Of a stretch of DNA of 64,000 nt, positions 21,264 through 59,039 are shown piece after piece; the stretch's first letter is position 1; each line of letters opens with the position of its first letter. The notes beneath the pieces are model-generated. The model saw only the letters and a list, made by a program, of their open reading frames with translations, made no database searches and was not told the origin of the DNA. This DNA comes from Hemileia vastatrix (taxonomy: Eukaryota > Basidiomycota > Pucciniomycetes > Pucciniales > Zaghouaniaceae). A program made the translations under genes and the position numbers. The stretch covers positions 24,693,106 to 24,757,105 of the forward strand of contig JASXTE010000001.1 of assembly GCA_030280995.1 (NCBI GenBank), written 5' to 3'.

Positions 21264-21297
<34 letters not shown>

Positions 21298-21749: not shown

Positions 21750-21769
21750 ATAGAAAGGTATCAATGTTC

Positions 21770-21935
21770 AGGGATCCGCAATTAGGGATCAGCAATTTTT
21801 TTTGCTGGGATCAGACATTATTAATTGCAAATGATTCTTATCCACTAGCCCCAGGGCTAGTGGATAAGGATTGCACAATAATGCATTATCCCACCTCTTA
21901 TACCCCAATTTCTGTTCCTAATTCCGGATCCCAAA
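21770..21935. repeat. Foldback at the left end of copy 1
   Basis: About 80-bp inverted arms meet at 21852. The core 21837-21868 (CTTATCCACTAGCC...GGCTAGTGGATAAG) is palindromic except for the central pair, and the arms extend outward through GGGATCCG/GGATCCC and CATTATT/AATAATG. Repeated at 27575-27742 in copy 2. Copies 3 and 4 start inside the right arm, so they keep only half of it. Confidence 0.85.
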
Positions 21936-22483
21936 CTCATCACATCCATGATTGATTTGTAAGCAAGTCACATGACATATAATTGCAGATGACATCCTTA
22001 TGTGTCTCTTCACTCTATGCTACTTGAATTTGGTGGTGAACACATAACATTTTTTCTCATCCTTATGTGTCTCTTCACTCTATGCTACTTAATTTTGGTG
22101 GCAAACACATAACATTTTTTTCTATCTACACACCCCACCTGCTTATTTGGTGGTGAATTCCCACTTCTGACTCATTACCTAAACCTTTTACCAACAATAA
22201 TGAAGCACCTCTCTACTAGTAAGCAACTTCACTAAGATATGAATGCTATCACCTTAACTTAAGCTGCTAACTCTGACTCTGACTCTGGGTTGGAAGACAC
22301 TTTATCTTATATGTCTTTTCAATGATCTTTATGAAGAAGAGGATCCCAAACCTGCACCAGCTCTCCCCTCCCTTGAATCACAAAACATTCTTTTCACCAG
22401 CATACACTCTGTCATTATGCTAATCACCCTCCAACATTTTGAAACACAACTCTATTAATATTTTTTTTTTTTTTTTTCATACT

Positions 22484-23320
22484 CTCCAAATGTTCAACTT
22501 GTATGATTTATTCACTTGGTTTGGTATTTTTGTTTTTTGAAGAGTCATTTTTATTTTGAATTTATGCTGAATGTCTCTTTTTTAAATGTCTCATTTGTTT
22601 TAATTCACCAGCTCAACATGAAATCACATATTTTCTGCAATCTCATAATTTTTCACTGTTTCTTTTTTTCATTCATCCCTCATATCCTTTCCTCCTCTCC
22701 TCAAACATCCATCAAACAATTTGGCTTTATTTATTTTCTCATCTCATCTCTCCAGGTAAGTCATTTTATTCATTTTTTTTTAATTTTTTAATTGCTAATT
22801 ATAATTTTTTTGTTTTATTTTCTGTTTATTTTTCTTCTTTTTTTTTCTTTTTTGTATCTAACTTTTTTTTGAAAGTGGTTATTTTTGATTTTTATGGTAA
22901 AATTGATCTTTTTTTTCTCTTTCCCTTTTTTCTTTCACTTTTAGCTCCATAACCTTACTCTTCGTCCCTCCTTGTCATAATCATTATCCCCTTCTTTCCC
23001 CTATTTCACTTTTTTTTAGTTCCATGTCATTAAAATACATACATTGCACATTCTCTATGCGATTCACTTACTCCATATTCAATTTCCCCCAAATTCCAAC
23101 ATCAATCTTTCTTAATATATTTTTCCTACTTTTCAATCAAGGTAAGTTTCATCTCCTTTTTTTCATGCCTATATGATATCTCATTCCTTTTATGAAAACT
23201 TCATACTTAAATATATGTATGACTCTTATCTGGATAACAGTGAACTTATAAAACTCCTTTTGATCTCATCTTCATTACCACTTTTCAAGTTTTTGTAAAA
23301 TTTTGAAAATCAGACTCGGA
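22484..23320 (+). other. Leader region of the copy-1 dioxygenase gene
   Basis: AT- and T-rich sequence conserved in all four copies, with splice-donor-like sites at CTCTCCAG|GTAAGT (22755) and ATCAAG|GTAAGT (23141). The short open frame from the ATG at 22618 is broken by a stop in copies 3 and 4, so this is more likely non-coding leader than protein. Confidence 0.5.
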
Positions 23321-23640
23321 ATTAGGGTTAGGTTTATTCAAATCTAATGTTCTTTTTACTGAAGATTCTCCTGAAGGCTACCTTTCATTTCCTGCAAACA
23401 GATTTGAATTTGATTCAGTGGTTGCTGAGATATTGACCGTTAAAGTTGAGCCTTTTTTTTCCCAATTTAAATTTTTATTTCATTTTTTTATGTAACAAAT
23501 TAGGGTTAGGTTTATTTAAATTGCATGTCCTTTAACTGAAGATTTTACTAAAGCATATCTTTCATTTTCCACAAACAGGTTTGAATTAGGTTCAGTGGTT
23601 GCTGAGATTTTGACCTTTGAAGTTGAGCCTTTTTTCCAAA
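23321..23640. repeat. TTAGGGTTAGG modules, copy 1 (two units)
   Basis: Two units of about 180 bp start AATTAGGGTTAGGTTTATT (23321 and 23501). They run through a conserved GAAGATT..CCTGAAG..TATCTTTCATTTCC block and TTCAGTGGTTGCTGAGAT to end in AGTTGAGCCTTTTTT. No frame is kept between units. The same module recurs three times in each of copies 2, 3 and 4. Confidence 0.85.
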
Positions 23641-23738
23641 TTTCACTTGTCTTATTTCACATTTTTATATTGCATATTTAGAGGATAAGGATTCTGAAAC
23701 TCTTATATGATTATTATCTAGGCATTTCAATTATATAG

Positions 23739-24298
23739 GCATATATTCGTTGGTCAAGAATATCACTAAAGCTCAAAAAGATGAAGATTTTTGCTTATGG
23801 GACACTCTACCTTCCTTTGACTCTTTTCTTGCTTTTCAACTCAACAAGCTCTGTAATAAAGCATTTGAAAAAAATCATGAACTTGCAACCAAAGTTGGAA
23901 TACTGAATTGGTGTGACTCCGAATTGGAAGATATCAGCCACAAATATCTTTTATTTTCTAATGTTATTATCACTCATTCTGGATTCCACAATAGGATTCA
24001 TATCGATAGGAATGATGCCAATTTTCTTACTTTTGGAATATTCTCATATATCAATCCGATAACTGGCCACCCAATACCATCTCCAGCTAAAATCAAAGGA
24101 CATGGTTTATATTTTCCAGACCACCGGTGCATCATTGATTTTGGTTTGGGAAATGGTATCATCGAAACTATTTGGAATTCTTCTAAGGATAATCATCAAA
24201 CGACCAAAGCTCCTCCTGGTTTGGAATCCTGTCAAGATTTCACTCATTTCGGTTGCTCATTTCAAATCAGTAATAAGTTGATACAAAGAATCAATAAG
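23739..24298 (+). CDS. Tet-like 2OG-Fe(II) oxygenase, catalytic exon (copy 1)
   Basis: Open exon between an acceptor (TTATATAG, 23738) and a donor (AAG|GTAAAG), matching the rust-type Tet-like 2OG-Fe(II) dioxygenase domain. Residues read IYSLVKNITKAQKDEDFCLW at the start, then the iron-binding HxD in FHNRIHIDRNDA, a G-rich turn (INPITGHPIPSPAK), LYFPDHRCIIDFGLGNGII, the distal His region DNHQTTKAPPG, and FTHFGCSFQIS. The family oxidises 5-methyl bases in TET/JBP enzymes; activity here is inferred. The upstream exon with WRPGFVKGYSL, present in the copy at 57.4-58.3 kb, is missing from copy 1, so the protein may be truncated. Downstream, 24448-24600 may be a C-terminal exon. The gene faces the SANT gene tail to tail inside the same transposon. 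Confidence 0.8.
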
Positions 24299-24654
24299 GT
24301 AAAGTTATTCGATTTAAAAAAAATTTATCTAGATCCAAAAAGTATGGGGATTAGAGTTGTCATCGAAAATTTTATATTTTTTCATAAATTTTTAATAAAT
24401 ATTTTTTATATATCAATTTTCTCAAATAATGTGATGAGCCATCGACCTTGTGTTGTATAACAGGTAATCATGATAACATTTATTTGTTTTATGGGGTTCC
24501 TCTTGCCTATACCTGTAGAAAGTCCCAAACTTTTGTTTCTCGACTTGGTCTGCATTTTGGCTTGAGGGATTGTCATTACTTTAAACTAGGGAAATTGATA
24601 TATATTAGATATTTATTTAATAATTTATGTAATTATATTAAATTTAGATGACTT

Positions 24655-25075
24655 CCACCCCTTACTTCAATAAAATGCAGGGGGGGGTATTGCCAAATTT
24701 TCAAATCTGACATGTGAAATTGATGACTTAGAAAAATTTTGGTGATACCCACCCTTTGCTTCAATAAAATGCAGGGGAGAGTATTGCCAATTTTTTTAAA
24801 CAGATATAGAATTTTTTTGACTTGTAAATATTTTTGTGATACCCGTCCCTTACTTCAATAAAATCCATGGGGGGTTGTGCCAAAATTTCTTATAAGACTT
24901 GTGAAATTCTTGACATGTAAGAATTTTTGGGATACCGGTAAAATGCAGGGGGTAGTAAAGCCAAATTTTCATATAAAACTTTCAAGATTCATGACATGAA
25001 AGAATTTTTGTGATACCCACCCCTTACTTCAAAAAAATCCAGGGGTGGGGGATTGTCAAATTTTCAAAGGAGACT
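24655..25075. repeat. GTATTGCC intergene repeats, copy 1
   Basis: Five imperfect units of 80-100 bp, each with TACTTCAATAAAATGCAGGGG..GTATTGCCAAATTTTC. They lie between the stop ends of the two convergent genes. The unit has AATAAA-like signals and partly inverted GGTGATACCCACCC/GGGGTATTGCC ends. Related units: 30470-30610, 35200-35335, 40120-40170 and 56870-57010. A shared terminator/polyadenylation zone is a reasonable guess. Confidence 0.8.
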
Positions 25076-25202
25076 TGAAAATTTTATTTAAAAAAAGAAT
25101 ATTTAACATTAAAATACAATATTTCAAGAAATACAGAAAATAATTGTAAAACTTATGTACAAATAAATATGAACACATGAAGTGTGAAAGAAATAAAAGA
25201 AA

Positions 25203-26599
25203 CTAGTCAATAAAAAATTTCATTAAACGTTCTATTTCTTCAACAGATTTGTTTGCTTTAATGCATTCGATCAAGAAATCTTTCTTTTTAGAACTTTCTT
25301 GGAGATCATGCTTATACTTCATCTGTTCCATTAAGTTTTGATGCTCGAGTGTTTTTTCCTTATTTTTGGATTTTTCAATACTAAGAGTTAACTCAAACTT
25401 CTTCTCCTCCAAATCTTGGGCCCTACCATCCTTCTGTAAAGAGAGCTCAAACTTCTTCTCCTCCAAATCTTGGATCCGATCATCCTTCCGTAAGGAGAGC
25501 TCATACTTCCTCTCTTCCAAATCTTGTACTCTGTCATCCCTCCTTAAAGAGAGCTCGTATTTCTTCTTTTCAAAGCTCATAGTCTCTTTAGCAATTTTCA
25601 CTTGTTCTAGAGTGAGAATAAAAATTAACATAAAGTAGAAGAAAAGCAGAGTAAAGTAATAAGAGGTATGATATCACTTACCAGCATCACGTTTCTCTAA
25701 AAACTGTTCCATCGAAGAAAAAGGTGTTTGTGATGAAGTATCACTTTTTCGTCTTCTTTGGGAGAGGAAATTCAGACTAGTTGAAGCCCTTCTCTTTTTG
25801 TTCAACGTAGCATTTTCCTCCTCATCATTGTCACTAGCTTCAGACTCAGTTGATTGGGGATCCTGGGTTTGTTCATCAGCCTTTTAAGAAATAAGAAAAA
25901 GATAAGTAAATAAAAAATAGAATTGATAAGATAAAAGAAACAGACCTGAGTTAGATTTGGTTGGGTTAAATCACCTATAGGATCTACAGAAAAGCTATTT
26001 AGATATGTCTCATTCAAATGAGGGAAGGCTTGAGTGGAGGAAGAGGATGGGAAAAGATTTGCTTCGACATCATGTTCAGAGATAGGATCTTCTCCATCCA
26101 ACATGTTTACAGGATTAACATCGGCTCGCTCTCCAAAAATTGCATCCATCTCTTTAAAGTAAGGACATAAAGAATCAAGTTTATTGTCTATGGATTTTAT
26201 ACCCTTAGTTATATCAATGTCAGTAACCCCAAAACCAGTGGAAGATGAAAGAGCCTTTGCCTTCTTGTATTTTTCTCGATAATGCTTGAAGCGTTCAGAC
26301 ATCTGTTTAGGCAAAATATCAATCCTTCCCTTGGTCTTATTGCGTAATTCATTTGCCATTAGAAGATAGCCATTAACTTTTGATGTGGGGGGCCATCCTA
26401 CTTTAGTGGCATACTCAGTACCAAAACAAGAATCATAGTTAGATTTGGTTTTCAGCCAGTTGATAAGAATGAGATGTTCATCTTTTTTTAATTGAACAGT
26501 CTTTGATTTCTTGGCTGAGTGGGGGAAAGAGGAAGTAGTGGGAATTGAAGAACAACTGGGTGATGGCTGCCTTTGAGAAGATCTTGGATGACGAGGCAT
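25203..26599 (-). CDS. SANT/trihelix-like DNA-binding protein with coiled coil (copy 1)
   Basis: Three exons on the minus strand: from ATG 26599 to about 25947; a second of about 200 bp (ADEQTQDP...LEKRDA); and a third, about 25616-25203. Residues about 35-120 resemble the Myb/SANT-like (trihelix) domain of Harbinger second proteins: LKKDEHLILINWLKTKSNYD, GWPPTSKVNGYLLMANEL, QMSERFKHYREKYKKAK. The middle is acidic with KKRR basic patches (nuclear signal likely). The C-terminus has four tandem 17-residue coiled-coil repeats of the form YELSLRRDDRVQDLEER, then a KKKDFLIECIKANKS tail conserved between copies. In PIF/Harbinger elements such a protein binds the ends and brings the transposase to them; the same role is inferred here. 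Introns (GTCTGT..AAAAG and GTAAGT..CTCTAG) keep frame, so this copy may be functional. Confidence 0.8.
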
Positions 26600-26950
26600 G
26601 TTATTATAAATGAAGATGAAAAGGAGCAGAAACAAGCAGATGAGATAGCGAGATGAAAAGGAGAAGAATCAAATAGATGAAATGGGGAGAAATTCTGAGC
26701 GGATAGAATGAAGAGGATGGGATGAGAATGGAAGTGTGCAGCAAGGTAGAAGGCTGGGATATCCAGAAAGTTGTCCAAGATGTGGTTATCAAATATTGAG
26801 GATAAAAATGTCAGATAAGAGGTGAACATTGACACTTAAAGTGTCTAATAACCCAATTATTAGCAAAAATAATTGCGGAAGATAATTGGGGTATGCAGAT
26901 TATTTTCCGCAATTAATTTAATTGTGGATCGGTTAACATTGATACCCCCT

Positions 26951-27555: not shown

Positions 27556-29126
27556 ATAGAGAGGTATCAATGTTCAGGGATCCGCAATTAGGGATCAGGA
27601 ATTTTTTTTTGCTGGGATCAGACATTATTAATTGCGAATGATTCTTATCCACTAGCCCCAGGGCTAGTGGATAAGGATTGCACAATAATGCATTATCCCA
27701 CCTCTTATACCCCAATTTCTGTTCCTGATTCCGGATCCCAAACTCATCACATCCATGATTGATTTCTAAGCAAGTTAAATGACATATAATTGCAGATGAC
27801 ATCCTTATGTGTCTCTTCACTCTATGCTACTTGAATTTGGTGGTGAACACATAACATTTTTTCTCATCCTTATGTGTCTCTTCACTCTATGCTACTTAAT
27901 TTTGGTGGCAAACACATAACATTTTTTTCTATCTACACACCCCACCTGCTTATTTGGTGGTGAATTCCCACTTCTGACTCATTACCTAAACTTTTTACCA
28001 ACAATAATGAAGCACCTCTCTACTAGTAAGCAACTTCACTAAGATATGAATGCTATCACCTTAACTTTAGCTGCTAACTCTGACTCTGACTCTGGGTTGG
28101 AAGACACTTTAGCTTATATGTCTTTTCAATGATCTTTATGAAGAAGAAGATCCCAAACCTGCGCCAGCTCTCCCCTCCCTTGAATCACAAAATATTCTTT
28201 TCACCAGCATACACTCTGTCATTATGCTAATCACCCTCCAACATTTTGAAACACAACTCTATCATTTTTTTTTTTCATACTCTCCAAATGTTCAACTTGT
28301 ATGATTTATTCACTTGGTTTGGTATTTTTGTTTTTTGAAGAGTCATTTTTATTTTGAATTTATGCTGAATGTCTCTTTTTTGGATGTCTCATTTGTTTTC
28401 ATTCACCAGCTCAACATGAAATCACATATTTTCTGCAATCTCATAATTTTTCACTGTTTCTTTTTTTCATTCATCCCTCATATCCTTTCATCCTCTCCTC
28501 AAACATCCATCAAACAATTTGGCTTTATTTATTTTCTCATCTCATCTCTCCAGGTAAGTCATTTTATTCATTTTATTTTTTTAATTTTTAGATTGCTAAT
28601 TATGATTTTTTTTTTGTTTTTTTTTCTGCTTATTTTTCTTCTTTTTTTTTCTTTTTTGTATCTAACTTTTTTTTGAAAGTGGTTATTTTTGATTTTTATG
28701 GTAAAATTGATCTTTTTTTTCTCTTTCCCTTTTTTCTTTCACTTTTAGCTCTATAACCTTACTCTTCATCCCTCCTTGTCATAATCATTATCCCCTTCTT
28801 TCCCCTATTTCACTTTTTTTTAGTTCCATGTCATTAAAATACATACATTGCACATTCTTTATGCAATTCACTTACTCCATATTCAATTTCCCCCAAATTC
28901 CAACATCAATCTTTCTCAATATATTTTTCCTACTTTTCAATCAAGGTAAGTTTCATCTCCTTTTTTTAATGCATATATGATATCTCTTTCCTTCTATGAA
29001 AATTTCATACTTAAATATATGCATGAGTTTTATCTGGATACCAGTGAACTTATTAAACTCTTCTTGTTCTCATCTCCATTACCACTTTTCAAGTTTCTGT
29101 AAAATTTTAAAAATCAGAATTTAAAT

Positions 29127-29750
29127 TAGGGTTAGGTTTAATGGAATCTAATGTTCTTTTTAATGAATATTCTCCTGAAAGCTACCTATCATTTCTCACA
29201 AACAGATTTGAATTTGGTTGAGTGGTTGCTGAGATATTGACCTTTAAATTTGAGCCTTTTTTCACAATTTAATTTTTTTTATTTCATAACTTTATGTAAT
29301 TAATTAGGGTTAGGTTTATTTAAATCACATGTCCTTTAACTGAAGATTATCCTGAAGCCTATCTTTCATTTCCCACAAACAGGTTTGAATTTGGTTCAGT
29401 GATTTCTGAGATTTTGACCTTAAACGTTGAGCCTTTTTTCAAATTTAAATTAATTTATTTTATGTTTTTATATTTAATAATTAGAGAATAAGAATTTTGA
29501 AACTCTTATCTGATGTTTATCAAGGCTTTTATCTCCATCTTGTTGGAACTTTCATCATCAATTTTCAAATTATTGTGTAATTTTAAAAATCAAAGTCAAA
29601 ATTAGGGCTATGTTTATTCAAATCTTATGTTCTTTTAGCTGAAGACTCTTCTGAAGCCTATATTTCATTTCCCATAAATGAATTTAAATTTGGTTCAGTG
29701 GTTGCTGAGATATTGACCTTTTAAGTTGAGCCTTTTTTAAATTTCATTTA
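29127..29750. repeat. TTAGGGTTAGG modules, copy 2 (three units)
   Basis: Units start at about 29127, 29304 and 29602; the third is mutated to TTAGGGCTATG. Same layout as in copy 1, plus one extra unit. Confidence 0.85.
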
Positions 29751-29765
29751 ATTTATTTCATGTTT

Positions 29766-30000
29766 AGACCAGGATTTGTTGAAGGCCATTCTCTTGGTAT
29801 GTCTGATAATATATGTTTCATTCTTAAAATCATGTCACTCATTTTATTTCCATAGGCATCTATTCTTTACTTAAAAAAATTTCTCAAGTTCATCACCAAA
29901 CAACCAAAGCTCCACCTGGCATGGAATCTTGTCAAGTTTTCACACATTTTGGATGTTCATTTCAAATCAGTGAAAAATTAATCCACAGAATAAAAAAGGT
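29766..30000 (+). pseudogene. Tet-like dioxygenase remnant (copy 2)
   Basis: Keeps the end of the upstream exon (RPGFVEGHSL, 29767-29797) and, after an intron, GIYSLLKKISQVHHQTTKAPPG and FTHFGCSFQIS. Everything between KNITKAQ and NHQTT is deleted, including the HxD iron-binding motif, so this copy cannot be an active oxygenase. Confidence 0.8.
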
Positions 30001-30755
30001 AAAAAAAGAAGTTAAATTCAACAAATATAAAAAAATGTTAAAAATCCTGTGAATAATTTACTCACTTTGGCTGCTCTTTTCCAATCAATAGGGAGCTGGT
30101 CAATAGGATTGATAAGGTTTGAGAGAAAGTTGAGGAAAAAAAACATTAAATAGAACAAAAAAGTATGGGGTGTAATATAGGTTGTCAACTTTTATTTATA
30201 TTTCACAAATTATCATTTTAAAAGTCATATATGATGCTCTACTTACATAAATCAATGAGCCATTGGCCTTGTGTTGATTAACAAAATCATGAGGAAATTT
30301 TTTTTTCTCATGAGGTTCATGTATAGATTTGTGTTTGATCTCATTGACTTTGGTCACAGGCAATTTCCACTCACATTTTTACTTGAATTTCATTAATTTA
30401 GGTTTGTAAATTATTTTATAAGACTTGTTTAAATGCTAATTTATGCAATGAGCATAAATTTTTGCAATCTATGCCCCTACTTCAATAAAACACAGGGGAG
30501 GGTATTGCCATCTTTTTTGTCATAAATTCTTTTCTGACTTAGAAAACAAATGGCAATTCCCACCCCCTGAGATGGTAAATATCAGGGGAGGGTATTGCCA
30601 AGAATTTTTCTTGACATAAATCATTGTTAATTCATTTGATGGTAACTGAATTTTGGTGTTATCCAATTGATATTGTTAATTTTTGAATTTTTCATCATTC
30701 TCTCTTTTCATACTAACCTTCTCCCTCTCCAAATCTAAACAATCTTTCTCAATTT

Positions 30756-32126
30756 CTAAAAATTATTCTTCTTTTGACTGTGAATGAAACCACTTCTCTT
30801 CCTCAAAAAGTAGTTGATAGCTTTAAAACATTCTCTCAAGAAATCTTTCTTTTTTGAACCATCTTCAAGTTGATACTTTAATTTCAGTTGATCCAAAAGG
30901 AAATTGTACTCTAGAGCCTTCTCCCCTTTCTTTATCTTGAATTTCTTTACCTCCAATTCATGTGACCTCTCTTCCCTCTTTAAAGAAAGCTCAAATATCT
31001 TCTCAGCCAAGTCTTTTACCCTCCCATCCCTCTGTAAAGAAAGCTTGACTTTCTTCTCCTCCAAGTCTTGTGCCCTAGCATCCCTTTGTAAAGAGAGCTC
31101 TAATTTTTTCTTTGGAAAATTGAGAGTATATCTTGCTACTTCAACTTTACCTACAGTGAAAAGGAATATTGAAAAAAGAAAATAAAAGCTCACTTAATTA
31201 TTAAGAGGTATGCTATCACTTATCAGATTCATTTTTCTCCAGAAAATAGTCAATGGAAGAAAAAGGTGTTTGGGAAAAACTATCTCCGTTTTGCTTTCTA
31301 TGACTATTTAAATTAAAATTGATTGATGGTTTTTGCTTTATTTAGGAGGTAAAATTTTCCTCTTCATTATTGATGCTAGCTTCAGATTCACTTGCTTGAG
31401 GATCCTGGGTTTGCTCATTAGCCTTTTTAGAAATAAAAAAAATAAAACAACTAGAAAAGAAATAAAAACTTACTGGAGTGGGATCATGTTGGTTTATATC
31501 ACCATAAGGATCTATTGGAAAGCTATCTAGATTTTTTGAATTTAGAACAGGGGAGGCTTGAGTGGAGGAAAAGGATGCAAAAAGATTTTTTTCAACATCA
31601 TGTTTGGAGATAGCATCTTCAACATCCAACATGTTGGGAGGATTAACATCAGATTTCTCTCCATAATAGCATCCATATCTTTAAAGTATGGACATAGAGA
31701 TTCAAGCTTATCATCTATGGATTTTATGCCCTTACTGATATCAATGTCAGTAATACCAAAACCAGTAGAAAATGAAAGAGTCTTTGCCTTCTTGTATTTG
31801 GCTTGGTAATTCTTGAAACGTTCAGACATCTGTTTAGGCAAAATATCAATCCTTCCCTTTGTCTTATTTTGTAATTTATTGGCCATTAGAAGAGAGCCAT
31901 TGACTTTTGATGCAGGGGGATGTCATACTTTAGTTGCATTCTCAGTACCAAAACAAGAATAATAATTAGTTTTTATTTTCAGCCAGTTGATAAGTATGAG
32001 ATGATAATCTTTTTTTAGTTGAAAAGTCTTTGAATTCTCAGCTAAGCGGGGGAAAGAGGGAGTAATGGGATTTGAAGAACAACTGGAGAAAGCCTGATTT
32101 TGAAAAGATCTATGATGACAGGGCAT
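30756..32126 (-). pseudogene. SANT/coiled-coil gene, broken (copy 2)
   Basis: Same exon order as copy 1. The SANT-like block reads to ENATKV and then meets an in-frame stop where copy 1 has GWPP, and a frameshift follows near 31665 (DMDAI..). The coiled-coil exon (30756-31160) is still open, with repeats such as FELSLKREERSHELEVKKF. The stop is shared with copy 3. Confidence 0.85.
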
Positions 32127-33845
32127 GTTGAGATATTTGAATATGAAAAGGAGAAGAAAAAAATAGATGAGATGGGGAGGGGTTTTGAACGGAAATGAAT
32201 AGACAGGATGGGAGTGCACAGCAAGGTAGGTAGGCTTGAACATCCAGAAAGTTGTCCAAGATGTGGTTATGAAAAATTGATGATAAAAATGTAGGATAGA
32301 GGTGAACATTGCCATGTAAAAGGTCTAATAGCCCAATTATCAGCAAAAATCATTGCAGAAGATAATTGTGGTATAATGATTTTTATCTGCAACTTATTTA
32401 ATTGCAGATCGGTCAACATTGATACCCCCAAATAATGCATTATCCCACTTCTTATACCCTAATTTCTGTTCCTCATTCCTGATCCCAAACTCATCACATC
32501 CATGATTGATTTGTAAGCAAGTCACATGACATATAATTGCAGATGACATCCTTATGTGTCTCTTCACTCTATGCTACTTGAATTTGGTGGTGAACACATA
32601 AGATTTTTTCTCATCCTTATGTGTCTCTTGACTTTATGCTACTTAATTTTGGTGGCAAACATATAACATTTTTTTCTATCTATAAACCCCACCAGCTCAT
32701 TTGGTGGCAAATTCCCACTTCCCACTCATCACCTAAAGCTTCTACCAAAAATAATGAAGCACCTATCTACTAGGAAGCAACTCCACTCAGCTATGAATGC
32801 TATCACATTAAATTTAGCTGCTGACTCTGACTCTGACTCTGGGTTTGAAGACATTTTAGCTTATATGTCATTTCAATGACCTTTATGAAGAAGAGGATCT
32901 TAAACCTGCACCAGATCTCCCCTCCCTTGAATCACAAAACATTCTTTTCACCAGCATAAACTCTGTCATTGTGCCAATCACCCTCCAACATTTTGAAACA
33001 CAAGTCTTTTAATTTTTTTTTCATACTCACCAAATGTTCAACTTGTGTGCTTTATTCATTTGGTTTTGTATTTTTGTTTTTTGAATAGTCATTTTTATTT
33101 TGAATTTATGCTGAATGTCTCTTTTTTAAATGTCTCATTTGTTTTCATTCACCAGCTCAACATGAAATCACATATTTTCTGCAATCTCATAATTTTTCAC
33201 TGTTTCTTTTTTTCATTCATCCCTCATATCCTTTCATCCTCTCCTTAAACATCCATCAAACAATTTGGCTTTATTTATTTCTCATCTCATCTCTCCAGGT
33301 AAGTCATTTTATTAATTTTTTTTTTTGAATTTTTGTTTGTTAATTATAATTTTTTTCTTCTTTTTTTTGCTTTTTTGTATCTAACTTTTTTTTTGAAAGT
33401 GGTTATTTTTGATTTTTATGGTAAAATTAATATTTTTTTTCTCTTTCCCTTTTTTCTTTCACTTTTAGCTCCAGAAACCCTACTCTTCATCCCTCTTTGT
33501 CATAATCATTATCCCCCCTTTCCCCTATTTCAATTTTTTTAGTTACATGTTATTAAAACGCATACATTGCACATTCTTTATGCAATTCACTTACTTCATA
33601 TTCAATTTCCCCCAAATTCCAACATAAATCTTTCTCAAGCTATTTTTCCTACTTTTCAATCAAGGTAAGCTTCATCTCCTTTTTTTTAATGCATATATAA
33701 TATCTCCTTCCTTCTATAAAAATTTCATACTTAAATATATGCATGACTCTTATCTGGGTACCAGTGGACTTATCAAACTCTTCTTGTTCTCATCTCCATT
33801 ACCACTTTTCAAGTTTTTAAAAAATTTTAAAAATCAGAATTGAAA

Positions 33846-34470
33846 TTAGGGTTAGGTTTAATGGAATCTAATGTTCTTTTTAATGAATACTCTCCTGAAG
33901 GCTACCTATAATTTCTCACAAACAGATTTGATATTGGTTCAGTGGTTGCTGAGATATTAACTTTTAAATTTGAGCCTTTTTTCACAATTTAATTTTTTTT
34001 ATTTCATAATTTTATGTAATAAGTTAGGGTTAGGTTTATTTAAATCACATTTCCTTTAACTGAAAATTCTCCTGAAGCCTATCTTTCATTTCCCACAAAC
34101 AGGTTTGAATTTGGTTCAGTGGTGGCTGAGATTTTGACCTTAAAAGTTGAGCCTTTTTTCAAATTTAAATTAATTTATTTTATGTTTTTATATTTAATAA
34201 TTAGAGAATAAGACTTTTGAAACTCTTATATGATGTTTATCAAGGCTTTTATCTCCCTCTTGTTGGAACTTTCATCATCAATTTTCAAATTATTGTGTAA
34301 TTTTAAAAATCAAAGTCAAAATTAGGGTTAGGTTTATTCAAATCTTATGTTCTTTTAGCTGAAGACTCTTCTGAAGCCTATATTTCATTTCCCATAAATG
34401 AATTTGAATTTTGTTCAGTGGTTGCTGAGATATTGACCTTTTAAGTTGAGCCTTTTTTTAAATTTCATTT
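33846..34470. repeat. TTAGGGTTAGG modules, copy 3 (three units)
   Basis: Units start at about 33846, 34023 and 34320, with the same spacing (about 177 and 297 bp) as copy 2. Confidence 0.85.
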
Positions 34471-34487
34471 AATTTATTTCATGTTTA

Positions 34488-34722
34488 GACCAGGATTTGT
34501 TGAAGGCCATTCTCTTGGTATGTCTGATAATATATGTTTCATTCTTAAAATCATGTCACTCATTTTATTTCCATAGGCATCTATTCTTTACTTAAAAAAA
34601 TTTCTCAAGTTCATCACCAAACAACCAAAGCTCCACCTGGCATGGAATCTTGTCAAGTTTTCACACATTTTGGATGTTCATTTCAAATCAGTCAAAAATT
34701 AATCCACAGAATAAAAAAGGTA
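34488..34722 (+). pseudogene. Tet-like dioxygenase remnant (copy 3)
   Basis: Nearly identical to the remnant in copy 2, with the same internal deletion that removes the catalytic core. Not functional. Confidence 0.8.
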
Positions 34723-35477
34723 AAAAAAGAAGTTAAATTCAACAAATATAAAAAAATGTTAAAAATCCTGTGAATAATTTACTCACTTTGGCTGTTCTTT
34801 TCCAATCAATAGGGAGCTGGTCAATAGGATTGATAAGGTTTGAGAGAAAGTTGAGGAAAAAAAACATTAAATAGAACGAAAAAGTATGGGGTGTAATATA
34901 GGTTGTCAACTTTTATTTATATTTCACAAATTATCATTTTAAAAGTCATATATGATGCTCTACTTACATAAATCAATGAGCCATTGGCCTTGTGTTGATT
35001 AACAAAATCATGAGGAAATTTTTTTTTCTCATGAGGTTCATGTATAGATTTGTGTTTGATCTCATTGACTTTGGTCACAGGCAATTTCCACTCACTATTT
35101 TACTTGAATTTACATTAATTTAGGCTTTTAAATTATCTTATAAGACTTGTTTAAATGCTAATTTATGCAATGAGCATAAATTTTTGCAATCTATGCCCCT
35201 ACTTCAATAAAACACAGGGGAGGGTATTGCCATCTTTTTTGTCATAAATTCTTTTCTGACTTAGAAAACAAATGGCAATCCCCACCCCCTGTAATGGTAA
35301 ATATCAGGGGAGGGTATTGCCAAGAATTTTATTTGACATAAATCATTTTTAATTCATTGGCTGGTAACTGAATTTTGGTGTTTTCCAATTGATATTGATT
35401 ATTTTTGAATTTTTCATCATTCTCTCTTTTCATCCTAACCTTCTCCCTCTCCAAATCTAAACAATCTTTCTCACTTT

Positions 35478-36848
35478 CTAAAAATTATTCTTCTTTTGAC
35501 TGTGAATGAAACCACTTCTCTTCCTCAAAAAGTAGTTGATAGCTTTAAAACATTCTCTCAAGAAATCTTTCTTTTTTGAACCATCTTCTAGTTGATACTT
35601 TAGTTTCAGTTGATCCAAAAGGAAATTGTACTCTAGAGCCTTCTCCCCTTTCTTTATCTTGAATTTCTTTACCTCCAAGTCATGTGACCTCTCTTCCCTC
35701 TTTAAAGAAAGCTCAAATATTTTCTCCGCCAAGTCTTTTACCCTCCCATCCCTCTGTAAAGAAAGCTTGACTTTCTTCTCCTCCAAGTCTTGTGCCCTAG
35801 CATCCCTTTGTAAAGAGAGCTCTAATTTTTTCTTTGGAAAATTGAGAGTATATCTTGCTACTTCAACTTTACCTAGAGTGAAAAGGAATATTGACAAAAT
35901 AAAATAAAAGCTCACTTAATTATTAAGAGGTATGCTATCACTTATCAGATTCATTTTTCTCCAGAAAATAGTCAATGGAAGAAAAAGGTGTTTGGGAAAA
36001 ACTATCTCCGTTTTGCTTTCTATGACTATTTAAATTAAAATTAGTTGATGGTTTTTGCTTTTTTTAGGAGGTAAAATTTTCCTCTTCATGAATGATGCTA
36101 GCTTCAGATTCACTTGCTTGAGGATCCTGGGTTTGCTCATTAGCCTTTTTAGAAATAAAAAAAATAAAACAACTAGACAAGAAATAAAAACTTACTGGAG
36201 TGGGATCATGTTGGTTTATATCACCATAAGGATCTATTGGAAAGCTATCTGGATTTTTTGAATTTAGAAAAGGGGAGGCTTGAGTGGATGAAAAGGATGC
36301 AAAAAGATTTTTTTCAACATCATGTTTGGAGATAGCATCTTCAACATCCAACATGTTGGTAGGATTAACATCAGATTTCTCTCCAAAATAGCATCCATAT
36401 CTTTAAATTATGGACATAGAGATTCAAGTTTAACACCTATATATTTTATTCCCTTACTGATATCAATGTTGGTAATACCAAAACCAGTAGAAAATGAAAG
36501 AGTCTTTGCCTTCTTGTATTTGGCTTGGTAATTCTTGAAACATTCAGACATCTGTTTAGGCAAAATATCAATCCTTCCCTTTGTCTTATTTTGTAATTTA
36601 TTGGCCATTAGAAGAGAGCCATTGACTTTTGATGCAGGGGGATGTCATACTTTAGTTTCATTCTCAGTACCATAACAAGAATCATAATTAGTTTTTATTT
36701 TCAGCCAGTTGATAAGTATGAGATGATAATCTTTTTTTAGTTGAAAAGTCTTTGAATTCTCAGCTAAGCGGGGGAAAGAGGGAGTAATGGGATTTGAAGA
36801 ACAACTGGAGGAAGCCTGCTTTTGAGAAGATCTATTATGACAGGGCAT
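35478..36848 (-). pseudogene. SANT/coiled-coil gene, broken (copy 3)
   Basis: Shares the stop after ENETKV and the later frameshift with copy 2; the coiled-coil exon (35478-35882) is open. Additional substitutions mark independent drift after duplication. Confidence 0.85.
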
Positions 36849-39289
36849 GTTTAGATATTTGAATATGAAAAGGAGAAGAAAAAAACAGATGAGATGGGGA
36901 GGGGTTTTGAACGGAAATGAATAGACAGGATGGGAGTGCGCAGAAAGGTAGGTAGGCTTGCACATCCATAAAGTTGTCCAAGATGGGATTATGAAAAATT
37001 GAGGATAAAAATGTAGGGTAGAGGTGAACATTGCCATGTAAAAGTTCTAATAGTCCAATTATTAGCAAAAATCATTGCAGAAGATAATTGTGGTATAATG
37101 ATTTTTATCTGCAACTTATTTAATTGAAGATTGGTCAACATTGATACCCCCAAATAATGCATTATCCCACTTCTTATACCCCAATTTCTGTTCCTCATTC
37201 CTGATCCCAAACGCATCACATCCATGATTGATTTGTAAGCAAGTCACATGACATATAATTGCACATACCATGCTTATGTGTCTCTTCACTCTATGATACT
37301 TGAATTTGGTGGTGAACACATTACATTTTTTCTCATCCTTATGTGTCTCTTCACTATATGCTACTTAATTTTGGTGGTAAACACATAACATTTTTTTCTA
37401 TCTATACACCCCACCAGCTCATTTGGTGGCAAATTCTCACTTCTCACTCATCACCTAAAGCTTCTACCAACAATAATGAAGCACCTGTCTACTAGGAAAC
37501 AGCTCCACTCAGCTATGAATGCTATCACTTTAAATTTAGCTGCTGACTCTGACTCTGACTCTGGGTTGGAAGACACTTTAGCTTATATGTCTTTTCAATG
37601 ACCTTTATGAAGAAGAGGATTTTAAACCTGCACCTTCTCTCCCCTCCCTTGAATCACAAAAAATTCTTTTCACCAGCATACACTCTGTCATTATGCCAAT
37701 CACCCTCCAACATTTTGAAACACAACTCTTTTAAATTTTTTTTCATACTCTCCAAATGTTCAACTTGTATGATTTATTCACTTGGTTTGGTATTTTTGTT
37801 TTTTGAATAGTCATTTTTATTTTGAATTTATGCTGAATGTCTCTTTTTTAAATGTCTCATTTGTTTTAATTCACCAGCTCAACATGAAATCACATATTTT
37901 CTGCAATCTCATAATTTTTCACTGTTTCTTTTTTTCATTCATCCCTCATATCCTTTCATCCTCTCCTTAAACATCCATCAAACAATTTGGCTTTATTTAT
38001 TTTCTCATCTCATCTCTCCAGGTAAGTCATTTTATTAATTTTTTTATTTATTTTTTGATTGCTAATTATAATTTTTTTTTGTTTTTTTTCTGTTTTTTTT
38101 TCTTCTTTTTTTATTTTTTGTATTTAACTTTTTTTTGAAAGTGGTTATTTTTGATTTTTATGGTAAAAATAATCTTTTTTTTCTCTTTCCCTCTTTTCTT
38201 TCTCTTTTAGCTCCATAACCCTACTCTTCATCCCTCCTTGTCATGATCATTATCCCCCCTTTTGCCTATTTCACTTTTTTTAGTTCCATGTCGTTAAAAC
38301 ACATACATTGCACATTCTTTATGCAATTCACTTACTCCATATTCATGTTCCCCCAAATTCCAACATCAATCTTTCTCAAGCTATTTTTCCTACTTTTCAA
38401 TCAAGGTAAGCTTCATCTCCTTTTTTTAATGCATATATAATATCTCCTTCCTTCTATAAAATTTTCATACTTAAATATATGCATGACTCTTATCTGGGTA
38501 CCAGTGGACTTATCAAACTCTTCTTGCTCTCATCTCCATTATCACTTTTCAAGTTTTTGTAAAATTTTGAAAATAAGAATTGAAATTAGGGTTAGGTTAA
38601 TTTGAATCTAATATCATTTTAAATTATGACTCTCCTGAAGACTAACTTTTATTTCACACAAACAAATTTGAATTTAGTTCAGTGGTTTTTGAGATATTGA
38701 CCTTTAAATTTGAGCCTTTTTGTCCCAATTTAATTTTTTTATATCAAGGTTTTAGGTAATGAATTAGGGTTTGGTTTATTTAAATAACATGTCCTTTAAC
38801 TGAAGATTTTCCTGAAGAATCTCTTTTACTTCTCACAAATGGGGTTGAATTTGGTTCAGTGGTTGCTGAGATTTTGACCTTAAAAGTTGAGCCTTTTTTT
38901 CCAAATGTTACTTAATTTATTTTATATTTTGATATTTTATAATTAGAGAATAAGAATTCTGAAACTCTTATCTGATGTTTACCAAGGCTTTTATCTCCAT
39001 CTTGTTAGAATTATAATCATCAATTTTCAAATTATTGTGCGATTTTGAAAATCAGAGACAAAATTAGGGTTAGGTTTATTGAAATCTTATTTTATTTTAG
39101 ATGAAGATTCTTCTAAAGCCTATCTTTCATTTCCAATAAATGGGTTTAAATTAGGTTTAGTGTCTTCTGAGATATTGACCTTTAAAGCTGAGCCTTTTTT
39201 CTAAATTTAACTTAATTTATTTCATGTTTTTATATTTCATAATTAGAGAAAAAGGCTTCTGAAACACCTATCTGATGTTTATCTAGGCT

Positions 39290-39790
39290 TTTATCTTCCA
39301 AATCTTAGGATCACTCAGTTATTTCTTGGAAATTTCTTGAAAAAATTACATATTTGTGCATTTCAATCAAATCATAAACTGGCCAAGAAAGCTGGACTTC
39401 CCAATTGAACAGATATGGAATGGGTTGAATTCAGTAATTGCTATATCTTTTATTCTAATTTCATAGCCAGAGCCATTTTGACAAAACCAATTATAATATG
39501 CTTAATTTTTGGCTTTTCTGTTATATCAATCCTATTACTGGAAGACTAATCCCTTCACCTGCTAAAAGTAAAGGCCATGGACTATAACTTCCCAATTATA
39601 AATGTATCATAGAGTTTGGATTAGGAAATGGGATTATGTAAGCAATTTGAAATTATTAAAGTTATAATCATCAAACTACTAAGGCACTTCCTGGATTGAT
39701 ATCTTGTGAATATTTTACTCATTTTGAATGCTCTTTTCAGATAAATCAAAGTTTGATAAGCCATGGAAGTAAGGTAAGGAATAAGGGTCA
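39290..39790 (+). pseudogene. Tet-like dioxygenase remnant (copy 4)
   Basis: Heavily mutated but full-length core: blocks recalling KKAGLPN, YIFYSNFIARA, SILLED and MGLGNGI can be followed in shifting frames with stops. It did not pass through the deletion seen in copies 2 and 3, so it branched off earlier. Confidence 0.6.
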
Positions 39791-40239
39791 ATGGCTACTA
39801 AAGCATTAAGGAGGTGTTCTAAATATAGTAATTAAAGGATTTCCAAATTTTTATTTCTTTTTATTAAATTTTTAATTTATCAGCTATTAAAGATAATCAA
39901 TTAAATTAAGTATTGTGCCATCAAGCCCTTGTGCTGTATAAAGGTGTTCATTCAGTTATACTCTATGAATGAACCCATAATACTATTCTTGTAATATGTT
40001 TTCTTTGACTTTGCTCATGAAATCATTGACAGATATTATTTGGGATTCCTTTACTTGTTTGATTATCTTTTTTGATTGATTTAATTAAATATTTATGAAA
40101 TAAAATTAAAATTTGGTAATCTTTACCCCCTCCCAGAGTAAATTTTAGGGGGGGGTATTACCAAATTTTTAAAAAAGATGTGTAAGTTTTTGACTTGAAA
40201 AAAATTTGGAATGAAATATGAACAAAAAAATAAAAAAAA

Positions 40240-41170
40240 CTAGTAATCAAACATTTTAATTAAGCAGTCAATTTCCTCAACAGATTTATTAGCTTTAACA
40301 CATTCTATCAAGAAAACTTTCTTCTTTAAAACATTTTCAAGTTGTTACTTGAGTTTCATCTGATCCAATAGGAAATTTTATTCAAGAGCCTTCTCCTCTT
40401 TCTTTATCTCAAATTTTTTCTTCCTCAAGTCATGTGCTCTCTCATTCCTCTTTAAAGAAAGCTCAAATTTCTTCTCCTATGCTAGCTTCAGACTTGCTTG
40501 CTTGTAAATCCTCATTTTTTTCATTAGCCTTTTTAGAATTGAAAAATGAGATGTAAACATAAAAAATAAAACATCTAGACAAGAAATAAAAGCTCACTGG
40601 ATTGAGATCAGGTTGGTTTATATTTCCATAAGGATCTATTGAAAAGATATCTTAATTGGTGGAAGTCAAATGAGGGGAGGCTTGAGTAGAAGAGGATTGA
40701 AAAAGATTTCTTTCAACATCATGTTTGGAGATATCATCTTCTCCATCAAAAATGTTTGCAGGATTAAAATGGGCTCTCTCTCCAAATATGGAATCCATAA
40801 CTTATGGTAAGCACATAAAGAATCAAGTTTATTGTCTATAGTTTTGATGCTCATACTGATATCAAGGTCAGTAATACCAAAAACAGTGGAAGATAAAAGA
40901 GTCTTAGCCTTCTTGTATTTGGCTTGATAGTTCTTGAAGAGTTCAGAAATATGTTTAGGAAAAAGATCAATTCTTCCCTTTGTCTTATTTCATAATTCAT
41001 TGGCCATTAGAAAATATCTATTGACATTTGATGCAGGGGGCCATCCTACTTTAGTTGCATTTTCAGTACCAAAATAAGAATCATAATTAGTTTTAGTTTT
41101 CAGAAAGTTGATAAGTATGATATGATCATCTTTTTTAATTTGAAAAGTCTTTAATTTCTCAGCTGAGCGG
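40240..41170 (-). pseudogene. SANT/coiled-coil gene remnant (copy 4)
   Basis: Segments FQIKKDDHIILINFLKTKTNYD and GWPPASNVNRYFLMANEL are readable near 40990-41150, and coiled-coil pieces near 40260-40480, with stops and frame changes. The N-terminal end is cut off at about 41170. Confidence 0.75.
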
Positions 41171-54914: not shown

Positions 54915-55281
54915 AGGGGGTGTCAGTTCTGGCAAATACACACTTAACTTAAGTGCAGATTTCAAACCAAATCAGCACTTAAATTTTGAAAAAAGTCACT
55001 TATTTCAAAAAAGGGTGTCAGTCATAACCTCAAATCAGCACTTTTTTCCTGTTTTTTTTCACAACCACATGTTGGCCACAACATCCCTTCCTTTCTTACC
55101 CCATCCCTGTCACATGTGACACACTGACCTTCCTCACTCCCTACCCATCAATCCTTGGCACACACCCCTTCCTAACATTTTCAACATTTCATTACAACAT
55201 TTTGACCAGGCATGTTTACATTCTTTTTTACTTATTTCTTCTACCTCTTAATCTCTTTTCTTGTTATGTACCAGTTCTATA

Positions 55282-56587
55282 ATGCCTTCTAGACATTCCA
55301 AATCTCAAAAGGTAACTCAAAAATCTGCTTCCTCACAAAAGTCTCCTTGTAAAGCAAGCCCCACACCTGAAAAATCAAAGTCAGGTCAGCTAAAAAAGGA
55401 TGATTATCTCATCATAATTAACTTCCTTAAAATAAAATCAAATTATGATGCATGTTTTGAATGTGAAAAGTCCACTCGTATTGGATGTCCACCTTCTTCA
55501 AAGGTTAATGGCTACTTATTGATGGCCAATGAAGTAAGGAAGAAAAAAAGGGTGAGAATTGATATCAATCCTAAAAAAATGAAGGAGAGATTTAAGAGTT
55601 ATCAATCAATATATATAAAAAGGCTCATCATGCTGCAAATGAAACTGGCTTTGGTATTGACGATGATAATTTGGAGATTGGAATTACTACTGTTTCCAAA
55701 AAGCTCAATGTCATGTGTCCTTTCTATGAGGAAATGGATAATCTTTTTGGCTCCAGAGTTGATGTAAACCCTTGGTTTCTACAAAATAGTAATAAGGATA
55801 TACCCTCTGGATCCAAACATTCCTATAATCTTCCCGACACACCTTTACTTGAAGGAGATCAATCCCCTCCACCTTCTAACCATAGTTCAGCTGAAGATGA
55901 TCCCAACTATCAAGCAGAACAATTATATTTCAGCAGATCTGAATCCTCAGAGCCCCAAAATTTAAATGTATGATTACTTTTTCTTTTTTCTTCAATTCTT
56001 CTCTAAACTTCTCTTTCTTTCTAGTCTCCTACTCAAACTAAAACTCCATTAAATAATCTCAATTCTGGAAATTTGAATCCCGCTTTAAAAGCTACTTTAG
56101 ATGAACTTCCTGAAGTCTCTTGTTCAAAATCCAAACTAAAGAGACGACCCTCAACTTCAATGAACTTGAAGCATCTTTTAAAACATGGTAATACTTCAAC
56201 AAGCTCAATTGGCTTTCTTGAGGATTATTTTGAAAAAAAAGATATAAGTAAGATTTGTTTACTATATATCTTATTCATTAACTTATTAATTTATTTATTT
56301 CTATTTAATTTTCTCAGAAAAATCAACTATTGCAAAAAATACCCTTGATATTGAGAAGATGAAGTTTGATCATATGCTAAGGAAAGATCAGCAAGCCTTA
56401 GATTTGGAAGAAAAAAAATTTGAGTCAGAGAAGATGGAAAGAGTAAATGACCGTCAATTTCAAAGAGAAATTGCTACTTGTGAATTGGAAAAACAAGAAA
56501 GTTTTAAAAAAAGATTTCTTTATGGAATGTGTAAAAAATGGCCAATCTTATGAGGACATTAAAAAATTGCTTGACCTTTTCAATTGA
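55282..56587 (+). pseudogene. SANT/trihelix-like DNA-binding protein of the Harbinger element
   Basis: Homologous to the SANT genes of the array but diverged: SGQLKKDDYLIIINFLKIKS, PPSSKVNGYLLMANEV, INPKKMKERFKSYQSIY. A 2-base expansion in an AT run at about 55612 shifts frame before TGFGID. Exon 2 runs about 56025-56248 and exon 3 from about 56319. A one-base change in the A-run at 56507 shifts the tail, which otherwise reads KKDFFMECVKNGQSYEDIKK, matching the array copies. Apart from these two slips the gene looks recently intact. Faces the dioxygenase gene tail to tail. Confidence 0.8.
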
Positions 56588-56869
56588 TAAATTATTTTTC
56601 TAGGTAAATTAATTTTGTTTGATTTATTTTTGGTAATATTTTCTTATATGCTGACTTATAAAAAGTCTTGAATATAGTACTTTTTTTTTGAAGAATTTTC
56701 GAAATAATCATACAATTTTTCTATCTTTACATTCAAGTCAATAAGTTTGCTTATATTTTTTTTTGCCAAAAATTTGAAAATATAATACAATTATTCTATA
56801 TTTACTTTCATAACAATAAGTTTGCTAATCTAAATACTGCTAAGTAATTAAAATTCTATATCTCTTTTG

Positions 56870-57010
56870 AAAATTTGGCAGTACCTCCCCTTGAATTTTA
56901 TTGAAACAAGGGGTGGGTACCACCAAATTTTTCTAAGTCATCAATTTCACATGTCAGATTTAAAAATTTGGCAATACCCTCCCCTGCATTTTATTGAAGT
57001 AAAGAGTGAA
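56870..57010. repeat. GTATTGCC-type intergene repeats of the Harbinger element
   Basis: Inverted-orientation units (GAAAATTTGGCAGTACC..; TTTGGCAATACCCTCCCCTGC) matching those between the convergent genes in the array, in the same position relative to them. Confidence 0.8.
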
Positions 57011-57379
57011 AGTCACCAACATTTAATATAATTTCATTAATTAATTAATATATAAATAAGATATATCAAATTTACTACTTTTAAAGTAATGACAATTCCT
57101 CTAGCCAAAATGCAGATCAAATTGAGAAACAAAAGTTTGGGACTTTCCACAGGTATAGGCTAGATGAGCCCCATGAAACAAATAAATGTTATCATGATTA
57201 CCTGTTATACAACCAAAGGTCTTTGTCCCATTACTTTAGTTGACGAAATTGATATATAAAAAATATTTATTAAAAATTTATGAAAAAATATAAATTTTTT
57301 GATGACAACTCTAATCCCCATACTTTTTGAATCTAGATAGAGTTTTTTTAAATTGATTAACTTTACCTTCTTTCTTTAC

Positions 57380-58290: not shown

Positions 58291-58356
58291 TAATTTAGTT
58301 TTATGAAAAAATTTTTTTGGGATATGACAAAAAAAACATTTGCAGAGAATTTTTTT

Positions 58357-58500
58357 TATCAGATATCTTTTCTTCTGATGAGACTGATTATCTTTAATTT
58401 TTTTTAATATTTTAGAAGATGAATTTTTTTTTCATATATCTTTTCTTCTGATGCGACTGATTATCATTAAATTTTTTTGATTATTTAGAAGATGATTGTC
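58357..58500. repeat. Tandem duplication of about 75 bp
   Basis: The block ATATCTTTTCTTCTGAT..GACTGATTATC..TTTAGAAGATGA occurs twice in a row (about 58360 and 58434). Non-coding. Confidence 0.7.
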
Positions 58501-58679
58501 TTGAAATTGATTTTGAAGAATATGATAGAGTTGATAAATATGAAGATGATAAAGAAGATAAAGATGAAGATGATAGAAAAGTAAGGGGTGAATCTGAAGA
58601 AGAAGACATTTTTTTGATCTGAAAAAAATTTTAAATGTCAAAAAAATTCAACACATTTTTTTTTAAAAAAAAACTCACC

Positions 58680-59036: not shown

Positions 59037-59039
59037 ATA

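What the first reader, a model, noticed from the sequence alone, without database searches (positions are those of the whole stretch)
23739..26599. Transposon-borne pair: Tet-like dioxygenase and SANT/coiled-coil protein, always convergent
Seen: the two genes lie tail to tail in all four array copies and again, strands swapped, at 55282-58290 in a separate element with different ends. The domain order and the intergene repeats are also kept, although sequences have diverged. Known: TET/JBP-family enzymes oxidise 5-methyl bases and are expanded next to KDZ transposons in other basidiomycetes; PIF/Harbinger elements encode a transposase and a Myb/SANT-like partner. Inference: here the SANT protein would bring a base-modifying enzyme to the element's own DNA, for example to lift methylation-based silencing. 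A Harbinger-linked Tet-like/SANT module is, as far as I know, not described.
Basis: partly seen in the sequence, partly recalled or inferred. Interest (0 to 1): 0.87.

Follow-up and report, generated by a model that had tools for sequence, protein, structure and literature searches.

The report
Rust jumping gene with swappable TET
These genes belong to a common fungal jumping gene of an already described kind that carries a DNA-demethylation-type enzyme; the copies compared here suggest that its movement genes evolve together while the enzyme gene is exchanged between element families.

Summary
The convergent pair is real and recurs far beyond the window, but its core is already published. The TET-like gene is a clear 2OG-FeII_Oxy_6 (E 5.6e-28); the partner is a probable, sub-threshold Myb/SANT-like protein. 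In the same 747.6-Mb genome 20 of 20 sampled TET loci carry a PIF/Harbinger transposase on the TET strand, 19 of 20 the convergent SANT-like gene, and 13 of 13 SANT-anchored loci a convergent TET. In 12 of 20 loci matching terminal repeats lie between TA dinucleotides. Kojima (2025) describes such TET-bearing, TA-duplicating Harbinger elements of rusts, with a third protein said to lack Myb/SANT. Every window copy is damaged. New here: SANT-like distances track the transposase (r 0.94), TET's track neither (0.44-0.54). TET behaves as a cassette swapped between element families, switching inside the conserved palindromic repeats between the genes in one case and in or beside them in another, inside the window. 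This favours the SANT-like protein as the transposase's ordinary partner, not a dedicated TET guide.

The parts
21753..26949 (.). Array copy 1, a TIR-bounded Harbinger derivative (left GAAAGGTATCAATGTT, right AACATTGATACCCCC, TA on both sides); transposase core and TET upstream exon missing
   Evidence: coordinates read from the sequence
23738..24304 (+). TET-like core exon, 189 aa, stop-free, HxD = HID, distal His in NHQTT
   Evidence: Pfam PF20515 E 5.6e-28, alignment with 20 genomic copies
24640..25090 (.). Intergene tandem repeats, about 92 bp, five units; each an imperfect palindrome, most with AATAAA in the loop on the TET strand
25203..26599 (-). SANT-like/coiled-coil gene of copy 1: exons 26599-25946, 25880-25682, 25606-25203; intact frame of 418 aa
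   Evidence: Myb_DNA-bind_4 E 0.0035, below cut-off
22318..22449 (+). Remnant of the transposase C-terminal tail in copy 1; the catalytic core is missing
   Evidence: tblastn E 6.7e-6
27559..32429 (.). Array copy 2: TET core deleted, SANT-like frame with an in-frame stop
32430..37151 (.). Array copy 3, left end truncated; same kind of lesions as copy 2
37152..41170 (.). Array copy 4: TET full of stops, SANT-like gene interrupted at about 41170
54916..61911 (.). Element 2: TIR GGGGGTGTMAKTTCTGG, TA on both sides; all three genes present but broken
55282..56590 (+). SANT-like gene of element 2, frameshifted near 55600
57311..58431 (-). TET gene of element 2 (upstream exon and core); HxD reads HIK, one in-frame stop
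56861..58682 (-). Swapped TET cassette in element 2: 81-94% to family C but 49-83% to family D over 57161-58660, next to a D-like SANT-like gene; right switch in or beside the intergene repeats (56861-57160, where C is 85-89% and D 90-92%), left limit at the minisatellite edge
60493..61602 (-). PIF/Harbinger transposase of element 2 (DDE_Tnp_4 E 1.1e-22), broken by stops

Best explanation
The pair is two of the three genes of a high-copy, TA-duplicating PIF/Harbinger transposon. The order is left TIR, transposase, TET, then the convergent SANT-like gene, right TIR. The SANT-like coiled-coil protein is most likely the ordinary Harbinger 'ORF1' partner, which binds the element's ends and brings the transposase there. 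The TET-like enzyme is anti-silencing cargo that would oxidise methylated bases so that methylation does not shut the element down. Shown: the gene order, TIRs, TA flanks, purifying selection between families, co-divergence of transposase and SANT-like protein, and exchange of the TET cassette between families with a switch in or beside the intergene repeats. Inferred: DNA binding by the SANT-like protein, activity of TET, and its role against silencing.
For: PF20515 for TET and DDE_Tnp_4 for the transposase. 20 of 20 TET loci with transposase on the TET strand and 19 of 20 with convergent SANT-like gene. 13 of 13 SANT-anchored loci with convergent TET (12, one). 42 of 42 pairs within 6 kb convergent when the two top-150 lists are crossed. 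TIR pairs in 12 of 20 loci, 12 of 12 flanked by TA. HxD and distal His complete in 17 of 20 loci, 11 of 20 core exons stop-free. dN/dS between families: TET 0.07-0.23, SANT-like 0.19-0.29. Distance correlation transposase-SANT 0.94; TET core-SANT 0.44, TET core-transposase 0.45, TET upstream exon 0.53 and 0.54. Mosaic profiles. CpG observed/expected 0.05-0.13 in copies 2-4, element 2 and the left part of copy 1, against 0.61 and 0.58 in two stretches outside the elements. Two-protein requirement of PIF/Harbinger (PMC2836001, passages).
Against: The Myb/SANT match is weak: scores shown are 17.1-19.4 bits against a cut-off of 27; 10 of 15 members match at E up to 1, best E 0.001, and the most diverged, L014, does not match. 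No solved structure matches. AlphaFold models were too poor to use (pLDDT 39 and 34). An abundant subfamily keeps the TET core but lacks the upstream TET exon and yet spread (8 of 13 SANT-anchored loci show no upstream exon in the stretch fetched; L041-L043), so full TET may be dispensable. Within families dN/dS is less clearly below 1 (0.29-1.18), and TET copy 1 against element 2 is not distinguishable from neutral (0.50, interval 0.26-1.14). Elements are CpG-poor despite carrying TET. The correlations rest on non-independent pairs without a permutation test.
Confidence: 0.8

Rival explanations
1. Dedicated guide-and-enzyme module: the SANT-like protein evolved to bring TET to the element's own DNA.
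For: Strictly kept convergent neighbours; both genes under purifying selection between families.
Against: SANT-like distances follow the transposase (0.94), not TET (0.44-0.53); families A and C share transposase and SANT-like types but carry different TETs, and element 2 has a D-type SANT-like gene with a C-type TET.
Confidence: 0.15
2. The arrangement is passive: TET is a hitch-hiker with no role for the transposon, kept because copies are young.
For: The 150 best TET hits are 95-100% identical to copy 1 and 141 of 150 are stop-free, as a recent burst would give; a subfamily amplified without the upstream TET exon.
Against: Between families TET has dN/dS 0.07-0.23 with high dS (1.5-2.7), and the metal-binding residues are complete in 17 of 20 loci.
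Confidence: 0.12
3. The intergene repeats are mainly tandem poly(A)/termination sites that keep convergent transcripts apart; recombination in them is a by-product.
For: They lie between the two stop codons, in one orientation; 63 AATAAA on the TET strand against 5 on the SANT-like strand over 19 arrays; stable predicted hairpin in one unit each of families A, C and D.
Against: Only one of the two transcripts would be served by most of these signals; the arms resemble the TIR start (GGGGGTAT), which fits a protein-binding role as well; the hairpin is weak in family B and in the median C unit, and only 25 of 1525 cells are double changes.
Confidence: 0.35

Closest known systems
PHISTA, TET+ PIF/Harbinger transposons of Pucciniales (Kojima 2025, PMC12730594)
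   Same: Harbinger-type DDE transposase, TET/JBP dioxygenase, a third protein, TA target duplications
   Different: Kojima states that no third protein contains a Myb/SANT domain; here the third protein has a repeated sub-threshold Myb/SANT-like match.
Canonical PIF/Harbinger elements (Ping/Pong, zebrafish Harbinger3; PMC2836001, passages)
   Same: Two transposition proteins, a DDE transposase and a Myb-like ORF1
   Different: TA instead of 3-bp duplications; added TET gene; intergene palindromic repeats
ESTA, hAT7, IS3EU, EnSpm, Dileera and Helitron TET+ elements of rusts (Kojima 2025)
   Same: Carry a TET and exchange it between element types
   Different: Other transposases; Kojima found no repeats or signature at the ends of exchanged TET segments, whereas here the switch lies in or beside conserved repeats
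Kyakuja/KDZ elements with AG-type TET (Agaricomycetes; in Kojima 2025)
   Same: Transposon-borne TET
   Different: Other transposase superfamily; TET of another type

Membership tests
TET/JBP-like dioxygenase (2OG-FeII_Oxy_6, PF20515) | Profile match above curated cut-off | tested here: met
   98.8 bits against cut-off 27
TET/JBP-like dioxygenase (2OG-FeII_Oxy_6, PF20515) | HxD and distal His conserved | tested here: met
   complete in 17 of 20 loci (exceptions L011, L016, L024 at one residue each) and in copy 1; element 2 of the window reads HIK
TET/JBP-like dioxygenase (2OG-FeII_Oxy_6, PF20515) | Oxidises 5mC (or another base) | not testable with these tools
   no assay
PIF/Harbinger transposon | DDE_Tnp_4-type transposase | tested here: met
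   E 1.1e-22 in element 2; relatives of it in 20 of 20 sampled loci
PIF/Harbinger transposon | Myb/SANT-like second protein | tested here: inconclusive
   10 of 15 members match Myb_DNA-bind_4 at E up to 1, best 0.001; scores shown are 17.1-19.4 bits against 27
Canonical PIF/Harbinger | 3-bp target duplication | tested here: not met
   TA in 12 of 12 loci with recognised TIRs
PHISTA (Kojima 2025) | TA target duplication | tested here: met
   12 of 12; element 2 and copy 1 of the window
PHISTA (Kojima 2025) | Transposase falls in the PHISTA lineage | not tested
   reference sequences are in the supplement, which was not available
PHISTA (Kojima 2025) | Third protein present, without Myb/SANT domain | tested here: inconclusive
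   third protein present; SANT-like match sub-threshold

The most novel reading that the evidence does not exclude
These elements are a modular platform: transposase, SANT-like partner and TIR form one co-evolving transposition unit, while the TET gene is an exchangeable anti-silencing cassette. The cassette is swapped between element families by recombination in palindromic repeats that the families keep between the two convergent genes. Repeated TET replacement would be an arms-race response to host silencing.
Probability: 0.4. Interest if true: 0.7.

Novelty: new member of a known kind. Interest (0 to 1): 0.5.

Why it matters
TET-bearing transposons are known in rusts, but how TET passes between elements was open: the 2025 survey saw no signature at the ends of the exchanged segments. 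Here two exchanges (family C, and element 2 inside the window) switch in or beside a conserved intergene repeat, and the partner protein co-evolves with the transposase rather than with TET. That makes the roles of the three proteins, and whether TET protects its own element from methylation, directly testable in one genome with many copies of graded intactness.

Tried and rejected
The first thought that element 2 begins at 54331 was wrong: 54331-54530 is a short TIR-bounded sequence of its own. AlphaFold jobs on the SANT-like exon (8 rows) and the TET exon (2 rows) gave pLDDT 39 and 34 and were not used. PDB sequence searches gave nothing relevant. A viral-contig scan with TET found no relative. 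Rfam found nothing. RNAalifold returned no consensus structure for the 81 distinct repeat units (that script ended in an error). Against a structure taken from one unit, 73% of cells pair versus 47-52% for slid controls, but only 25 of 1525 cells are double changes, so I do not claim a conserved RNA structure. The idea that the repeats co-vary with the TIR was dropped: family D has TIR GGGGGTGTC but repeats with GGTACCC and GGGTATT. In one search I dropped one 6-mismatch pair in L020, which lies inside the element, and extra weaker pairs in L018, L021 and L024; L015, kept, also has 6 mismatches in 20. In one search the rows with the short group wrongly included L034, which has the upstream exon in two pieces; I use no number from those rows. 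In one search the TET query was translated in the wrong frame; only its SANT-like and transposase rows are used, and TET was redone. One SANT-anchored row of my list was left out and added. A search for KDZ transposases and one for Myb_DNA-bind_4 genes in the genome did not complete, so TET copies outside Harbinger elements were not counted.

Full report
Setting. The window lies in a genome of 747.6 Mb in 791 contigs (G000, contig C26:24693106-24757105), with G+C 33.2% in the window. No name is given. A rust fungus (Pucciniales) is my inference from the gene content and the literature; no call names it.

What is in the window. Copy 1 (21753-26949) holds a stop-free TET-like core exon (23738-24304, +; PF20515 98.8 bits, cut-off 27) and, convergent to it, a three-exon gene with GT-AG splice sites and an open frame of 418 aa (26599-25203, -). 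Its first exon carries a weak Myb/SANT-like match (E 0.0035, below the cut-off), and its last exon has internal repeats of coiled-coil type (read from the sequence). Copies 2, 3 and 4 are tandem duplicates. None keeps both genes whole: copies 2 and 3 lost the TET core, the TET of copy 4 is full of stops, and its SANT-like gene is cut by retrotransposon-like sequence. Element 2 (54916-61911) has other TIRs and contains a Harbinger transposase (60493-61602, -; DDE_Tnp_4 E 1.1e-22). Its TET has lost the HxD motif (HIK) and has a stop, and its SANT-like gene is frameshifted. All four array copies still carry the C-terminal tail of the same transposase (E 1.5e-7 to 6.7e-6), and tblastn finds traces of its start in copies 2 to 4 (E 0.001 to 0.06), without the catalytic core, so they are deletion derivatives of the same kind of element.

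Genome-wide test. From the 150 scored PF20515 matches I listed about every 7th row, 22 rows, and fetched the first 20 as loci of 9.9 kb. The search had 10,849 first-look candidates of which 150 were scored, so this is the scored top and not a census. All 20 loci have transposase pieces upstream on the TET strand. 19 of 20 have the SANT-like gene downstream on the opposite strand; the exception, L017, loses its resemblance to a sister copy soon after TET. A simple scan for matching GGGGT ends found TIRs in 12 of 20 loci, and all 12 have TA outside both ends, which the scan did not ask for. Starting from the other gene, 13 of 13 loci taken from the 150 scored SANT-like matches have a convergent TET. 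Crossing the two top-150 lists gives 42 pairs within 6 kb, 42 of 42 convergent, 2.17-2.57 kb apart.

Both proteins are maintained. HxD and the distal His are complete in 17 of 20 loci, and 11 of 20 TET core exons are stop-free. Between families dN/dS is 0.07-0.23 for TET and 0.19-0.29 for the SANT-like protein where it could be computed; dS is high in these comparisons (1.5-2.7, except 0.39 for SANT-like A-C), and two SANT-like comparisons gave no value. Within families the ratios are 0.29-0.57 for TET and 0.49-1.18 for the SANT-like protein (leaving out the rows for the short subfamily), as expected for recent bursts with much decay. In the window alone, TET copy 1 against element 2 gives 0.50 with an interval that includes 1.

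TET is exchanged; the SANT-like protein is not. On 20 loci plus element 2, pairwise protein distances of transposase and SANT-like protein correlate at 0.94 (171 pairs). TET core and upstream TET exon correlate at 0.95 (210 pairs), but TET core with SANT-like only at 0.44 and with transposase at 0.45, and the upstream exon at 0.53 and 0.54 (pairs are not independent and no permutation test was made). Families A and C have nearly the same transposase (0.138, within A 0.157) and SANT-like protein (0.222, within A 0.198), and the A copy L011 shares C's TIR (another, L013, has GGGGGTATCAAAGTT), but their TETs differ (0.417). C's TET is D-like (0.186) although C and D differ in transposase (0.309) and SANT-like protein (0.474). 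Along a C element the identity changes from D-like (87%) to A-like (81%) between 5281 and 5400, inside its intergene repeats. Element 2 in the window is a second exchange: D-type over the transposase end (92-93%) and the SANT-like gene (90-96% in most windows), with a C-type TET (81-94% against 49-83% to D); the right switch lies in or just beside the repeats (56861-57160, where D is 90-92% and C 85-89%), and the left limit is at the edge of a minisatellite. C and D are themselves 87-92% alike just before and in the first repeats, so the second breakpoint cannot be placed more finely.

The intergene repeats. 19 of 20 loci have 2-8 units of about 92 bp between the two 3' ends, all in one orientation apart from stray hits elsewhere in L016, L020 and L021; L017 has none. 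They are recognisable across families whose TETs are 54-60% identical to copy 1. Each unit is an imperfect palindrome whose arms (TTTGGTGATACCC / GGGTATTGCCAAA) resemble the TIR start GGGGGTAT. Over the 19 arrays AATAAA occurs 63 times on the TET strand and 5 times on the other. Four typed units fold with z from -1.75 to -4.68; over 81 distinct units the median is stronger in A and D (-3.3, -3.9) than in B and C (-1.8, -1.9; a cruder shuffle). I cannot separate a terminator role, a protein-binding role and a mere homology block for recombination.

How it probably works. PIF/Harbinger elements need two proteins, a DDE transposase and a Myb-like ORF1 that binds the TIR and positions the transposase (PMC2836001, passages only). 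The co-divergence with the transposase makes the SANT-like protein the best candidate for ORF1. TET would be cargo against silencing. Support for silencing pressure: CpG observed/expected is 0.05-0.13 in copies 2 to 4, element 2 and the left part of copy 1, 0.02 and 0.18 in two retrotransposon remnants, and 0.61 and 0.58 in two stretches outside the elements; copy 1's TET and SANT-like regions are higher (0.47, 0.36). In a published rust, Austropuccinia psidii, transposons are hypermethylated, younger families more so (PMC12774611, passages). Against: an abundant subfamily has lost the upstream TET exon and still spread.

What is known. Kojima 2025 (PMC12730594; outline and abstract; text parts 1-4 of 7; passages; figure legends and section 4.2) reports TET in seven transposon lineages of rusts. 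These include fifteen TET+ Harbinger families with TA duplications and a third protein said to lack Myb/SANT, and the paper proposes the anti-silencing role. So the core of the finding is already described. What I did not see in print, in the parts of papers read and in the searches (open-licence PMC only; no search was aimed at breakpoints of TET exchange beyond), is the co-divergence test, a SANT-like third protein in these elements, and repeat-located switches.

Noticed in passing
window 54331-54530 and 1879-2077: Two related short (about 200 bp) TIR-bounded, MITE-like sequences with GGGGGTATCAAA-type ends, inverted relative to each other; the second lies at the 3' end of a Plant_tran transposase fragment (2059-2451).
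   Followed up: partly
window 58682-59870: G+C-rich minisatellite with 12-bp periods between transposase and TET of element 2; the swapped TET cassette begins at its edge.
   Followed up: partly
window 1-1150: Minisatellite with a 14-bp period near the left end of the window.
   Followed up: no
window 44430-45575 and 52253-54112: Retrotransposon remnants (Integrase_H2C2 in the first), CpG-depleted.
   Followed up: no
L041-L043, L029, L030, L033, L035, L039, L044: Abundant subfamily without the upstream TET exon; in L041-L043 transposase sequence is present and about 2.1 kb is missing relative to L025. The TET core of copy 1 has no methionine of its own, so where translation starts is unclear.
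   Followed up: partly
window 21140-21752 and 26950-27558: Spacer of about 610 bp repeated outside copies 1 and 2, showing that the array arose by tandem duplication that includes flanking DNA; copies 2-3 and 3-4 are joined right end to truncated left end.
   Followed up: partly
L025 4921-5280 (element coordinates) against L018: The non-coding stretch after the TET stop and the first repeats is more alike between families C and D (87-92%) than the TET coding sequence itself (about 78%).
   Followed up: no
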